A stretch of 34,498 nt of DNA from Thermoleophilaceae bacterium. GTDB lineage: Bacteria; Actinomycetota; Thermoleophilia; Solirubrobacterales; Thermoleophilaceae. Positions 4,367 through 9,171 of the stretch are shown here, piece by piece; the first letter of the stretch is position 1; every line of letters starts with the position of its first letter. A program made the position numbers and the translations under genes. The notes beneath the pieces are model-generated. The model did no database searches. It worked only from the letters and a program-made list of their open reading frames with translations, and had not been told where the DNA came from. The stretch covers positions 101,352 through 135,849 of the forward strand of contig JAUJNZ010000001.1 in assembly GCA_030447905.1 (NCBI GenBank). The letters are read 5' to 3'.

Positions 4367-6138
4367 GGCCCCCTCGCGCGAACCGCTTCCGCGACGCCTG
4401 GGCCGGCACGCTCCGCACCGACCGCACCGGCGAGCGCGTGCGCGTGGCCGGGTGGATCCACCGCCGCCGCGACCACGGCGGCCTGATCTTCGTCGACCTG
4501 CGCGACCGGACCGGGCTCCTCCAGCTCGTCTTTCGCCCCGAGGAGGCGCCCGCCGCCCACGCCGCCGCTGCGGCCCTGCGGCCGGAGGACGTCGTCACCG
4601 CCGCCGGAGAGCTCGTACGCCGCGAGGAGGGCACGGTGAACCCCGGCCTCCCGACCGGAGAGGTCGAGCTCAACGTCGTCGAGGTCGAGCAGCTCGCCGA
4701 CGCCGAGACCCCGCCGTTCCCGATCGACGAGGACTCCCCCGTCGGAGAGGAGACGCGCCTGCGCTATCGCTACCTCGATCTTCGGCGCGAGCGGATGGCG
4801 GTGGCGCTCGAGCTGCGCCACCGCGTCGTCCAGGCCATGCACCGCTTCCTCCACGAACGCGGCTTCCTCGAGCTCGAGACGCCGATGCTCACCCGCTCGA
4901 CCCCCGAGGGCGCGCGCGACTTCCTCGTCCCGAGCCGGATGCAGCCGGGCGACTGGTACGCGCTCCCCCAGTCGCCCCAACTGTTCAAGCAGCTCTTCAT
5001 GGTCGCTGGCTTCGAGCGCTACTACCAGGTCGTCCGCTGCTTTCGCGACGAGGACCTGCGCGCCGACCGCCAGCCCGAGTTCACCCAGCTCGACATGGAG
5101 CTCTCGTTCGTCGAGGAGGAGGACGTGATCGAGGTCTGCGACGAGCTCCTCCGCGACGCCCTAGCCGCCGGCGGGGTGGAGCTCGAGCTCCCACTCGACC
5201 GCCTGACCTACGACGAGGCCATGCTCCGCTACGGCACCGACCGTCCCGACCGGCGCCCCGGACTGGAGATCGCCGACCTCGGCGAGGCGTTCGCGGGGTC
5301 GGAGTTCCGGGTCTTCGCCGACGCGCTCGGCGGCGGCGGCGTGGTGCGGGGTTTCAGAGCGCCCGCCGGGACGGTCGAGCTTCCGCGCCGGCGCCTCGAC
5401 GAGCTGACCGAACACGCGCGGCGGCTGGGCGCCAAGGGCCTCGTGTGGGCGGTCCTCGAGGAGGGAGGGGCCTGGCGGTCGCCGGTCGCGAAGTTCCTCT
5501 CGGAGGAGGAGATGTCGCGCGCCGCCGCAAAGCTCGCGGCCCGCCCCGGCGACACGCTGCTGATCGTCGCTGACGGGGAGGCGGTCGCGGCGAGCGTCCT
5601 CGGCGAGCTGCGCCTCGCCGTGGGCCCGCCATCGCGGGGCCATGACCTCCTCTGGGTGGTCGACTTCCCGATGTTCGAGTGGAGTGAGGACGAGCGGCGG
5701 TGGGATTCCCTCCACCACCCGTTCACCGCGCCGGTCGGCGACCTCGACGCCAGCCCGGGCGCCTGGCGCAGCCGCGCCTACGACATCGTCATGGACGGGC
5801 TCGAGATCGGGGGTGGATCGCTCCGCATCAACCACCCCGATATCCAGCGCAGGGTCTTCGACGCGCTCGGCATCCCTCCCGAGGAGGCGCAGGCGCGCTT
5901 CGGCTTCCTGCTCGAGGCGCTGCGCTACGGGGCACCGCCCCACGGCGGCATCGCCTTCGGGCTCGACCGCCTGTGCGCGCTGCTCGCCGGGCACGACTCG
6001 ATTCGCGACGTGATCGCCTTTCCCAAGACGGCGAGCGGGGCGGACCCGCTCACCGGGGCGCCGGCGGCGGTGGACGCGCGCCAGCTGGGTGAGCTCGGCG
6101 TCCGGCCCGCGCCCGCGCCGAGCGCTCCGCGCCAGTAG
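4363..6138 (+). CDS. aspS: Aspartyl-tRNA synthetase, probably the non-discriminating (Asp/Asn) type
   Basis: This is a 591-residue bacterial-type AspRS. It has an N-terminal OB-fold anticodon domain (GWIHRRRDHGGLIFVDLRDR), a class II core with motif 2 FRDEDLRADRQPEFTQLD, a bacterial GAD insertion at roughly residues 300-420, and motif 3 GIAFGLDRL. The start is the GTG at 4363 overlapping the hisS stop. In the anticodon domain, His follows RRRD and Gly occupies the REEGTVN loop. These are the residues found in relaxed enzymes such as that of Pseudomonas aeruginosa, where Escherichia coli has Leu and Lys. I infer that it also charges tRNA-Asn with Asp, so Asn-tRNA would be made by the GatCAB amidotransferase. 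Confidence 0.96.
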   Translation: MRPPRANRFRDAWAGTLRTDRTGERVRVAGWIHRRRDHGGLIFVDLRDRTGLLQLVFRPEEAPAAHAAAAALRPEDVVTAAGELVRREEGTVNPGLPTGEVELNVVEVEQLADAETPPFPIDEDSPVGEETRLRYRYLDLRRERMAVALELRHRVVQAMHRFLHERGFLELETPMLTRSTPEGARDFLVPSRMQPGDWYALPQSPQLFKQLFMVAGFERYYQVVRCFRDEDLRADRQPEFTQLDMELSFVEEEDVIEVCDELLRDALAAGGVELELPLDRLTYDEAMLRYGTDRPDRRPGLEIADLGEAFAGSEFRVFADALGGGGVVRGFRAPAGTVELPRRRLDELTEHARRLGAKGLVWAVLEEGGAWRSPVAKFLSEEEMSRAAAKLAARPGDTLLIVADGEAVAASVLGELRLAVGPPSRGHDLLWVVDFPMFEWSEDERRWDSLHHPFTAPVGDLDASPGAWRSRAYDIVMDGLEIGGGSLRINHPDIQRRVFDALGIPPEEAQARFGFLLEALRYGAPPHGGIAFGLDRLCALLAGHDSIRDVIAFPKTASGADPLTGAPAAVDARQLGELGVRPAPAPSAPRQ

Positions 6139-6142
6139 CTGC

Positions 6143-6162
6143 CCCCGTCGCTTCGGACGGGG
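6143..6162 (+). terminator. Hairpin after aspS
   Basis: CCCCGTC (6143-6149) and GACGGGG (6156-6162) pair perfectly around a six-base GCTTCG loop, four bases after the aspS stop. Only a weak T content follows. It is a plausible terminator separating aspS from the convergent transposase remnant. Confidence 0.5.
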
Positions 6163-6176
6163 CATTCTGAGTGAGC

Positions 6177-7401
6177 TCACCGCAGCGAGGGCTTGCTGTC
6201 TCGATCGGTGACGGCGCGGCGGAGCACCGCTGGGCGGCCCTGGTTGGCCTCGAGCCACCCTCGAATGCTGTTCGCGTAGGCACGCTCGTCGTCCTGGCGG
6301 TTGGCGTGCAGCTGCATCAACAGCAGCAGCCGGTTCGTGCGCTTGCGGTTCTTGAGGCCATAACGCCGCGCGCGGACCGTGTCGCGGATCGGAGCGATGA
6401 GGCCGTCCATCGGCGAGGTCGAGAGGGGCATGTCGGCGGATCGCAGGCTGCGCAGGCCCCGGCGATAAAACTGTTCCTCGACCACGCGGCCAGCGCCCTC
6501 GAGCCAGCTCTGAAGCCGCGGGATCTCGGCTGCGTGAGCGTCGCGGATAAACGGCTTCCAGAACGCCGGTCCGGTGAAGGCCGCCTCCACGCGCGGCAGG
6601 AGTGCATCGATGGCGGCCCGGTGCTCAGGCTCTCGTGCGGATCTTGGCCATCAGCCGCTCCAGCGCGTGGCGCAGGTGCCACTCGCAGAGGTAGAGCTCG
6701 GCGTCGGGGAAGACGGCTCGCACGGCCCCGTTGAGGCCATAGTGGTTGTCGCAGACTACGCGCGGCGGAGCGCCCTCCAGGGCGCGCAGGAAGGTCTCCC
6801 AGTTGGCCTGGGAGGCGTCGGGGAACGCCTCGACGCGCCAGAGTTTCGGGCGTCCTGCCTCAAAGCCGGCCGCGCAGAAGACCCTGAAGGCGATCCGAAA
6901 GCGCCCGGTGGCCGGGTCGCGCACCGAGAAGGGCAGATCGTCGAGCAAGAGCGACCCGGCCGTCGGCCAGGCGATCGGGCGGTGAGGCTCAAAGACGACC
7001 GGTGCGAAGACCTCGACCCAGTCTCCGACCAGCTGCCCGTGGCGCGTCGTGCGCAGCTCGCCCGTCTGCGAGTCGGCGCGCAGCCGCCGCGCTCGCTCCC
7101 GTGCGACCAGGGCCGCCTGGCGGTAGCTCGTCCCGACTCCCACAGCCGCAACGCCTCGGCGATCCCGCGCGCCACGAACTGGTACCGGCGCGAGCGTGCG
7201 GGCCCTCGTGCAGGGGGACCGGCCGCTCGCAGGCCTCGCAGGCGTCGTGCTCTCGGTGAAGCGGTGCGGCCGGTCGCCGTCGGCGGGCACGCACCGATAA
7301 AGCTGGCGGCGGTGCCCCGCCTTGCCGTACTGGCCGTCGAAGCGCACGCGCGACCCCGCGTGCTCGGAACGCGGACAGGCCGCTCGCGCCTCGCTCCATG
7401 T
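6177..7401 (-). pseudogene. Broken transposase with Mutator/IS256-like signature
   Basis: The pieces of one protein lie in successive frames on the minus strand. Near 7401-7260 is a zinc-finger-like head with FDGQYGKAGHRRQLYRC. Then come CEACERPVPLHEGPHA in a second frame and VARGIAEALRLWESG in a third. From about 7130 to 6640 a long stretch resumes with SYRQAALVARERARR, LLLDDLPF and VVCDNHYGL, followed by the D..C..H signature PDAELYLCEWHLRHAL typical of Mutator-like DDE enzymes. A last shift near 6635 leads into EPEHRAAIDALLPRVEAAF and the C-terminus with SPMDGLIAPIRD. At least four frame changes make it inactive. No terminal inverted repeats were recognised. It sits directly before the iscU-mnmA fusion, in the place where a cysteine desulfurase gene is common in other genomes. 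Confidence 0.75.
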
Positions 7402-7641
7402 CTTCCCCCTCGTCGCCACGGCGAGCGACAAAGCTACGGGCGAAGGCGGACAGAATGCTCCAGCGAGAAGCGACGGGGGGGCCGCTGCTAGCCTCGGCCG
7501 TGGCTCGAGCCTGTACGCCAGCCGTGTTGATTTGAGCCAACACACTGGGATCGGGAGCCTGGATCAGGGGCGCGCCGTGGCTCGCTCCGCTGGGCACCCA
7601 CTTGCGACAGCAAGGTTCAAATCCCTGACGGCAGCGGCAGG
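7402..7641. other. Gene-free stretch between transposase remnant and mnmA
   Basis: I see no convincing gene here. The stretch contains a tRNA-T-arm-like string (GGTTCAAATCCC at about 7614-7625) without the rest of a cloverleaf. It probably also includes the outer end of the insertion element. No TAGGCT-like promoter is visible before the TTG start at 7642. Confidence 0.4.
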
Positions 7642-9171
7642 TTGGGGCCACCACTCCCTCCCACCTCGACTCCCGGAGCACGCACCACGTCCCTCTCGGC
7701 CTTCGAGGACCATCTCACGGCACCGCGCGGGCGCGGACGCCTGGCCACAGCGCGGCACGCCGGTGCCGCCGGCGGAGCGCCGTGCGGTGACCTCGTGCGG
7801 GTCGCCGTCCGGGTCGCGGGCGATCGAATCGCCGAGGCCGGGTACGAGGCTCGCGGGTGTGGAGCCGCCCAGGCCGCCGGCAGCGCGGTCGTGGAGCTCG
7901 TCGAGGGAGCGCCGCTGCTCACCGCCGCGCGCGTCGGCGCGGACGAGATATCGACGGCGCTCGGGGGGCTGACCCCGGGAAAGCGCCACGCGGCGACCCT
8001 CGCCGCCGATGCGCTCCACCGCGCGCTCGGCGCGGCGTCTGTCGACGCGCGGCTCGACGAGGGACCGCGCCGCACGCTCGTGGCCATGAGCGGCGGAGTC
8101 GACAGCGCGGTCGCGGCGCAGCTGGTCCGGGCTGATGGCGACGAGGTCGTGGCCGTGACCCTGGAGCTGTGGTCCGATCCCGCCAACGACGGCGAGCGCT
8201 CCTGTTGCTCTCCCCAGGCGGTGACCGGCGCGCGAGCCCTCGCCCACGCCATGGGCCTGCCTCACCTCACCCTCGACCTGCGCGAGCGCTTCCGACGCGA
8301 GGTGGTCGACGACTTCCTGCGCGAGCACGCCGCCGGAGGGACGCCCAACCCGTGCGTGCGCTGCAACGGCTTCGTCCGCTTCGATGAGATGCTCGCCCTG
8401 GCGCGACGCCTCGGGGCCCGACGGCTCGCCACCGGGCACTACGCGCACATCGTCCGCGATGCCGAGGGCCCCCTGCTCGCTCCGGCCGCCGACGCCGGCA
8501 AGGACCAGACCTACATGCTCGCGCGGCTCGAGCCGGCCGCCCTCGAGCGACTCCACTTTCCCCTCGCCGCGCGCACCAAGCTCGAGGTCAGAGCTGCCGC
8601 GCGCGAAGCCGGCCTCCCCGTCGCCGACCGCGCGGAGAGCCAGGATCTGTGCTTTCTGGCCGGGGTCGGCAAGCGCGGCTTTCTGCTTCGGCACGGCGAG
8701 CGTGCTCGCACCGGCGCGGCCGGGGGCCTCCGTCCCCGCGGCGAAATCGTCTCGGTCTCGGGCGCGGTGGTGGGCCACCACGAGGGCCAGGAGGGCTACA
8801 CGGTGGGACAGCGCCGCGGTCTCCGGGTCGCCGCCCCAGAGCCCCTGTACGTGCTCGCCAAGGACGCCGAGGCCAACCGGCTCACCGTCGGTCCGCGGGA
8901 GGCGCTCGCCAGCTCGACCGTCGCCCTCCGCGACGCCGTCCTCCACCGCGACGGCGCGCGGGTGGACCGCGTCAAGCTGCGCTATCGCTCGGCTCCCGTC
9001 CCCTGCCGCCTGGACGGCGCCCCGCTCCGCGGGTCGCACGCGCGTGCCTCGCTCACCCTCGCCCAGCCGACCGACGCCGCCGCCCCCGGCCAGACCGCGT
9101 GCCTCATGGCCGGCGACCGTGTCGTAGGCTGCGCCACAATAGGTGGAGATGACCGCGCCCCCCTCTCCTGA
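7642..9171 (+). CDS. mnmA: IscU/SufU-like scaffold domain fused to tRNA 2-thiouridylase MnmA
   Basis: The protein has 509 residues and two domains. Residues 18-130 are IscU/NifU-like: HLTAPRGRGRL at the start, then GGAPCGD with Cys48 and Asp50, RGCGAA with Cys73, and KRHAATLAADAL with His116. The third scaffold cysteine (IscU position 106) is Ala117 here. From about residue 145 a complete MnmA follows: PP-loop SGGVDS (150-155), a Cys188-Cys189 pair, NPCVRCN with catalytic Cys238, ATGHYAH, and SQDLCF with the second catalytic Cys337, then the barrel domains (GYTVGQRRGL). MnmA places sulfur on U34 of Glu, Gln and Lys tRNAs, using sulfur from a cysteine desulfurase relay. The fused scaffold could serve as the sulfur or cluster donor. 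The TTG start is a guess and the first 17 residues look non-native, possibly altered by the insertion element upstream. The end overlaps the next gene by 29 bases. Confidence 0.9.
   Translation: MGPPLPPTSTPGARTTSLSAFEDHLTAPRGRGRLATARHAGAAGGAPCGDLVRVAVRVAGDRIAEAGYEARGCGAAQAAGSAVVELVEGAPLLTAARVGADEISTALGGLTPGKRHAATLAADALHRALGAASVDARLDEGPRRTLVAMSGGVDSAVAAQLVRADGDEVVAVTLELWSDPANDGERSCCSPQAVTGARALAHAMGLPHLTLDLRERFRREVVDDFLREHAAGGTPNPCVRCNGFVRFDEMLALARRLGARRLATGHYAHIVRDAEGPLLAPAADAGKDQTYMLARLEPAALERLHFPLAARTKLEVRAAAREAGLPVADRAESQDLCFLAGVGKRGFLLRHGERARTGAAGGLRPRGEIVSVSGAVVGHHEGQEGYTVGQRRGLRVAAPEPLYVLAKDAEANRLTVGPREALASSTVALRDAVLHRDGARVDRVKLRYRSAPVPCRLDGAPLRGSHARASLTLAQPTDAAAPGQTACLMAGDRVVGCATIGGDDRAPLS
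9125..9130 (+). promoter_or_regulatory. TAGGCT -10-like hexamer
   Basis: TAGGCT sits inside the 3' end of mnmA, 12 bases before the GTG at 9143. It is the same spacing as at 56 and 2014. It may start a leaderless message for the anti-sigma-like gene and the sigma factor. Confidence 0.45.

What the first reader, a model, noticed from the sequence alone, without database searches (positions are those of the whole stretch)
7642..9171. IscU-like scaffold fused to MnmA, with the third scaffold cysteine replaced by alanine
One frame joins an IscU/SufU-type domain (residues 18-130) to a complete tRNA 2-thiouridylase. Cys48, Asp50, Cys73 and His116 of the scaffold site are kept, but the residue matching IscU Cys106 (persulfide acceptor/cluster ligand in the family) is Ala117. 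A dedicated, covalently attached sulfur or Fe-S donor for wobble-uridine thiolation would differ from the usual TusA/IscS relay, and the lost cysteine suggests altered chemistry. The MnmA catalytic cysteines (238, 337) and PP-loop are intact.
Basis: partly seen in the sequence, partly recalled or inferred. Interest (0 to 1): 0.78.

Follow-up and report, generated by a model that had tools for sequence, protein, structure and literature searches.

The report
Disarmed iron-sulfur scaffold fused to tRNA thiolase
In this bacterium and many related actinobacteria, a protein that normally builds iron-sulfur clusters has been fused to the enzyme that puts sulfur on the tRNA wobble base, and every fused copy examined has lost part of the site that would let it build clusters in the usual way, which points to a dedicated sulfur- or metal-handling attachment that nobody appears to have studied.

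Summary
The fusion is real. Window 7642-9168 (+) encodes a NifU_N/IscU-type domain (residues 23-129, E 1.2e-22) joined in frame to a complete MnmA (E 6.9e-96), the genome's only MnmA. It is not an assembly error: one match covers both parts in 110 of 199 genomes of the class, and the architecture recurs in other deep actinobacterial families. Ala117 at the IscU Cys106 position is confirmed and is a lineage trait. Of 96 fused proteins checked, none keeps the full Cys-Asp-Cys-His-Cys site. The window's order has CDCHA, others CDCHG or CDCxC, and some lineages are nearly or fully disarmed. All 27 separate nifU genes beside mnmA in other lineages are intact. In a Rubrobacter-like family, five unfused neighbours also carry CDCHA, so the loss goes with service to MnmA rather than with fusion itself. 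Best reading: a scaffold turned into an accessory module that keeps the mononuclear metal site but lacks the persulfide receptor, most likely relaying sulfur from SufS as SufU does. The mechanism is inferred and untested.

The parts
7642..9171 (+). fused NifU_N/IscU-type domain + MnmA coding sequence, 509 aa; TTG start uncertain
   Evidence: AlphaFold pTM 0.85
7708..8028 (+). NifU_N (IscU-type) domain, residues 23-129
   Evidence: PF01592 E 1.2e-22; closest NCBIfam models TIGR03419/TIGR02000/TIGR01999, above SufU; fold match to IscU Z 21.7
7783..7785 (+). Cys48 (IscU Cys37; SufU persulfide-acceptor position)
   Evidence: alignment
7789..7791 (+). Asp50 (IscU Asp39)
7858..7860 (+). Cys73 (IscU Cys63)
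7987..7989 (+). His116 (IscU His105)
7990..7992 (+). Ala117 in place of IscU Cys106 (persulfide receptor)
8071..9141 (+). MnmA (tRNA 2-thiouridylase) part, residues 144-500, with PP-loop SGGVDS
   Evidence: NF001138 321 bits, cut-off 284; 2hma Z 34
8203..8208 (+). Cys188-Cys189, the CC element of C-type MnmA
   Evidence: motif definition PMC11784392
8353..8364 (+). Cys238-x-x-Cys241 (E. coli Asp99 and Cys102 positions)
   Evidence: alignment to 2der
8650..8652 (+). Cys337 (E. coli Cys199 position)
   Evidence: alignment to 2der
7500..7652 (+). 6S (SsrS) RNA gene directly upstream, overlapping the TTG start by 11 bases
   Evidence: Rfam RF00013, 60.3 bits, gathering 46.4

Best explanation
The N-terminal part is a former Fe-S scaffold that became a dedicated accessory domain of a [4Fe-4S]-type MnmA. 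Shown: it has the IscU fold and ancestry; its nearest unfused counterparts sit in nifS-nifU-mnmA gene sets with an intact Cys-Asp-Cys-His-Cys site; and in this lineage it strictly keeps Cys48, Asp50, Cys73 and His116 (the Zn/Fe(II) ligand set of mouse ISCU) but has lost the ISCU persulfide receptor. Inferred: the domain holds one Zn or Fe ion and no longer builds clusters. It docks the cell's one clear cysteine desulfurase (SufS) onto MnmA and takes up persulfide on Cys48, the position that accepts sulfur in the Zn protein SufU. It then passes the sulfur in cis to the MnmA site (Cys238/Cys241/Cys337, expected to hold [4Fe-4S]), which puts it on U34 of the tRNA. It would thus work like SufU, although by descent it is NifU/IscU.
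For: Four ligands are kept and the receptor lost in 52 of 52 aligned proteins of the f1-4/f5/f22 families; these four are among only 11 of 109 domain columns conserved at 95% or more. In mouse ISCU, C35/D37/C61/H103 bind Zn and Fe(II), C104 does not, and C104 receives the persulfide (PMC6687725). In SufU the acceptor is Cys40/41, the Cys48 position (PMC10216065). Cys48 is the most persistent residue: in family f9 Asp50 and Cys73 are lost in 13 of 13 and the His/Cys pair nearly always, yet Cys48 stays in 13 of 13. The window's order (f1-f4) shows one clear cysteine desulfurase per genome (8 of 9 genomes with a single match, the ninth with a weak partial second). Here it is SufS (TIGR01979, 557 bits), beside a SufU gene (TIGR01994), and it carries the IHPH motif that holds the zinc-swapping His in B. 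subtilis SufS (sequence; motif position from memory). TusA is not found in two near-complete genomes of the order. All sampled MnmA partners are C-type.
Against: In family f7 the domain is a shortened remnant without the site cysteines (29 loci; hhalign E 1.7e-8), and some f8 members have no such domain at all, so MnmA can do without this relay in those lineages. ISCU and SufU use different acceptor cysteines, and this domain is nearer to ISCU/NifU than to SufU. The fused/broken association rests on few independent events (3 usable pairs, 2 concordant, not significant). No experiment.
Confidence: 0.4

Rival explanations
1. Pseudo-scaffold: the domain is mainly structural (folding, dimerisation, or a docking surface for tRNA or desulfurase). 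The metal site is left over or only stabilises the fold, and sulfur reaches MnmA directly, as from YrvO in B. subtilis.
For: Family f7 keeps a ~75-residue remnant without the site cysteines that is modelled with very high confidence (pLDDT 93-97). f9 has lost Asp50 and Cys73 and nearly always the His/Cys pair; f15 is degenerate. The domain has been lost at least three times in f8. Direct desulfurase-to-MnmA transfer is known in Bacillus (PMC11784392).
Against: In the window's own order and in f5 and f22 the four ligands are invariant in 52 of 52 aligned proteins within a domain that otherwise varies a lot, which is hard to explain without a metal-dependent role.
Confidence: 0.3
2. In-cis cluster maturation: the domain still loads Fe (or a cluster) and helps assemble or repair the oxygen-sensitive [4Fe-4S] cluster of the C-type MnmA. 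The persulfide is received by an MnmA cysteine instead of the lost Cys106.
For: The retained residues are the Fe(II) ligands of ISCU (PMC6687725). The partner is always C-type MnmA, the class with a [4Fe-4S] cluster in Thermus (PMC8584467). Ancestral gene order is nifS-nifU-mnmA. The CDCxC variants keep three cysteines plus Asp, a plausible cluster site.
Against: Loss of the receptor cysteine should cripple scaffold synthesis. SUF genes exist for general cluster supply. C-type MnmA without any scaffold domain is common, so the cluster can be obtained otherwise.
Confidence: 0.22
3. The fusion is an annotation, sequencing or assembly artefact (missing stop or frameshift).
For: In the Rubrobacter-like family f22 some genomes have nifU and mnmA as separate, closely spaced frames.
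Against: 96 individually checked fused frames from many assemblies, including isolate contigs such as Patulibacter (L010); 110 of 199 class genomes show one match across both domains.
Confidence: 0.01

Closest known systems
C-type (CC-CxxC-C) MnmA, e.g. Thermus thermophilus MnmA
   Same: Full MnmA domain set, PP-loop, CC-CxxC-C cysteine motif
   Different: Carries an N-terminal NifU_N domain
NifU/IscU Fe-S scaffold of nifS-nifU-mnmA gene sets (TIGR03419)
   Same: Same fold and descent; Cys-Asp-Cys-His kept here
   Different: Fused to MnmA; persulfide-receptor Cys replaced by Ala; scores far below the equivalog cut-off (73 vs 187.9 bits)
SufU zinc-dependent sulfurtransferase
   Same: Four-residue metal site; acceptor Cys position kept; SufS with the IHPH motif present in the genome
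   Different: Fourth ligand would be His rather than Cys; sequence and fold nearer to IscU/NifU (Z 21.7 vs 14.9-15.4)
B. subtilis YrvO-MnmA and E. coli IscS-TusABCDE-MnmA sulfur routes
   Same: Desulfurase-fed s2U34 synthesis by MnmA
   Different: Neither uses an IscU-like domain fused to MnmA (PMC11784392)

Membership tests
MnmA (tRNA 2-thiouridine synthase) | full-length match above the curated cut-off | tested here: met
   NF001138 321.2 bits vs 284; TIGR00420 259.9 vs 236.95
C-type MnmA | CC-CxxC-C motif | tested here: met
   Cys188-189, Cys238-x-x-Cys241, Cys337; definition PMC11784392
C-type MnmA | bound [4Fe-4S] cluster | not testable with these tools
   needs EPR/Mossbauer on purified protein
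NifU_N domain superfamily (PF01592) | profile match above gathering score and IscU fold | tested here: met
   80.8 bits vs 22; Z 21.7 to 4eb5_C
IscU/NifU cluster scaffold | Cys37, Asp39, Cys63, His105, Cys106 site | tested here: not met
   Cys106 position is Ala117; equivalog cut-offs not reached
IscU/NifU cluster scaffold | assembles a [2Fe-2S] cluster | not testable with these tools
   needs reconstitution
SufU | TIGR01994 equivalog score and four-ligand Zn site with C-terminal Cys | tested here: not met
   36.2 bits vs 92.5; the Cys128 position is not a Cys
SufU | Zn binding and persulfide uptake from SufS | not testable with these tools
   needs metal analysis and a transfer assay

The most novel reading that the evidence does not exclude
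A whole branch of actinobacteria repeatedly converted a general Fe-S scaffold into a cis-acting sulfur- or metal-delivery domain for wobble-uridine thiolation by deleting exactly one of two neighbouring ligands (Cys106 or His105). This would be a third way to feed MnmA, besides the Tus relay and the dedicated desulfurase.
Probability: 0.35. Interest if true: 0.75.

Novelty: new variant of a known kind. Interest (0 to 1): 0.6.

Why it matters
Whether MnmA works through a [4Fe-4S] cluster or a persulfide, and how sulfur reaches it outside the Tus relay, is disputed (PMC11784392). A natural fusion that keeps the scaffold's metal ligands, lacks its persulfide receptor, and comes in graded states of disarmament across relatives (including domain-free MnmAs) lets the two ideas be tested by mutation in one polypeptide. 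It also shows how a scaffold can be turned into a dedicated accessory domain.

Tried and rejected
Degraded nifS upstream of the gene: rejected. The 6138-7500 stretch reads as a minus-strand Mutator-type transposase fragment. SufU origin of the CDCxC variants: rejected; all score best to NifU models. 'Fusion causes Cys loss': weakened, since unfused f22 nifU genes also have HA. 'The mnmA-linked copy is broken wherever another NifU_N gene exists': mostly true, but with exceptions (G195 is the sole copy yet altered; G044 and G056 have extra copies yet are intact). Fold search for the f7 remnant: uninformative, because MnmA filled the list. Searches of other phyla with a genome centre failed because loci are not accepted as centres, so fusions outside Actinomycetota were not excluded. 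Literature: no paper on a NifU/IscU-MnmA fusion in the held open library; subscription papers were not searched. Domain-architecture databases (InterPro) could not be consulted.

Full report
Observation. The frame 7642-9168 (+) is open. It carries a NifU_N domain at residues 23-129 (80.8 bits, gathering 22) and a full MnmA at 145-500 (NF001138, 321 bits, cut-off 284). The AlphaFold model has mean pLDDT 85 and pTM 0.85. Residues 17-137 match A. fulgidus IscU at Z 21.7 and human ISCU at 19-20, with SufU at 14.9-15.4; residues 141-506 match MnmA 2hma at Z 34. The genome (2.58 Mb, 95% complete) has one MnmA, this one, and one other NifU_N gene.

The alanine at the Cys106 position is right. The MnmA cysteines are mis-assigned. 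Against E. coli MnmA (2der), Cys238 is at Asp99, Cys241 at Cys102 and Cys337 at Cys199. With Cys188-Cys189 this is the C-type CC-CxxC-C MnmA, as opposed to the D-type of E. coli (PMC11784392). The T. thermophilus CxxC-C enzyme carries a [4Fe-4S] cluster and is active only without oxygen (PMC8584467).

Distribution. One profile match runs across both domains in 110 of 199 genomes of the class (my count from the list). In a sample of 396 genomes of the phylum, fusions also appear in families f22, f54, f72, f15 and f71. The genomes bear codes, not names; named examples are Solirubrobacterales, Patulibacter, Miltoncostaeaceae and other Thermoleophilia MAGs. I call f22 Rubrobacter-like and f7 Gaiella-like only loosely; the Gaiella record L014 has the f7-type protein.

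The site. I extracted and aligned the domain from 96 fused proteins and the nifU genes lying next to unfused mnmA. Separate genes from families f6, f28, f50 and four other-phylum records (Dehalococcoidia, Bacillota, two Deltaproteobacteria) have C-D-C-H-C in 27 of 27. Fused proteins never do (0 of 96). The window's order has CDCHA (one CDCHG, one CDCHV). f5 has CDCHG. f22 has CDCHA/G. f54, f10, f11 and part of f8 have CDCxC, and one of the two f72 proteins does. The rest of f8, f15 and f71 are degenerate. f9 keeps Cys48 in 13 of 13, has lost Asp50 and Cys73 in 13 of 13, and keeps a His at position 116 in only one. In f7 (29 loci) the N-terminal stretch has shrunk to about 75 residues without the site cysteines but still aligns with the NifU profile (hhalign probability 95%, E 1.7e-8) and is modelled with pLDDT 93-97.

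Fusion is not the cause of the Cys loss. In f22 five genomes have separate nifU and mnmA genes, and all five have HA (the first also). What the altered copies tend to share is that another NifU_N gene (SufU or NifU) exists elsewhere in the genome. In f28, f50 and two f6 genomes the mnmA-linked nifU is the only copy and is intact. There are exceptions (G195, G044, G056).

History. On the MnmA tree, families are single clades with strong support, fused and separate states mix inside f22, and the domain has been lost at least three times in f8 (careful tree; quick tree). On the quick tree the site classes change at least 10 times, intact/broken at least twice, and fused/separate at least 5 times. 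Only 3 independent pairs on well-supported branches are available, so no significance is claimed.

Gene context. f6, f28, f50 and f22 have nifS directly upstream, that is nifS-nifU-mnmA. Searches also place nifS just before the fused gene in f10 and f11 (the 'up:no' flag for f10 reflects the weak SufS query, not absence). The window's order shows one clear desulfurase per genome, here SufS (557 bits) beside SufU. TusA occurs in the window's genome but is not found in two near-complete genomes of the order.

Mechanism. In mouse ISCU, Zn and Fe(II) are bound by C35, D37, C61 and H103; C104 is not needed for that and is the persulfide receptor (PMC6687725). The window's domain therefore keeps exactly the metal ligands and lacks the receptor. 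In SufU the persulfide acceptor is the first cysteine, Cys40/41, the Cys48 position here (PMC10216065). The persistence of Cys48 in f9 after the other ligands are lost, the SufS-only supply, and the IHPH motif in this SufS favour a SufU-like relay. The f7 remnants without site cysteines and the domain-free f8 members favour a structural role at least in those lineages. I put the relay at 0.40, pseudo-scaffold at 0.30 and cis maturation at 0.22. All three are inference beyond the sequence facts.

Novelty. No paper on this fusion was found in the open library searched. Each half is a known family, and the combination with systematic site loss looks like a new variant of a known kind. Domain databases were not available here, so the bare architecture may already be listed somewhere.

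Noticed in passing
window 7500-7652 (+); L123 2518-2672; L153 2855-3010; L150 3978-4131 (-); L103 3694-3849 (-): A 6S (SsrS) RNA gene lies just upstream of the fused gene and overlaps its TTG start by 11 bases. Of 17 related loci scanned, four also carry a 6S gene on the same strand upstream of nifU-mnmA, so the pairing may be conserved.
   Followed up: partly
window 6625-7545 (-), possibly on to about 6177: Remains of a Mutator/MULE-type transposase (weak, near-cut-off match) inserted between aspS and the 6S-mnmA unit; the reading is split over frames.
   Followed up: partly
L016 4777-6282 (+): In an Elusimicrobia record the nifU gene next to mnmA holds a long insertion starting at the first site cysteine; it looks like an intein (my reading, not tested).
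   Followed up: no
L134-L142, L204-L223: f7 MnmAs keep a ~75-residue shrunken NifU domain without the site cysteines, modelled with very high confidence (L014 model): a pseudo-scaffold worth structural study on its own.
   Followed up: partly
PDB 9hln_A / 9i7r versus 9hlv_A / 2hma: Some deposited MnmA chains nearly identical to S. pneumoniae MnmA have PNPC where 2hma has PNPD, probably an engineered Asp-to-Cys change that mimics the C-type seen naturally here (depositors' intent not checked).
   Followed up: no
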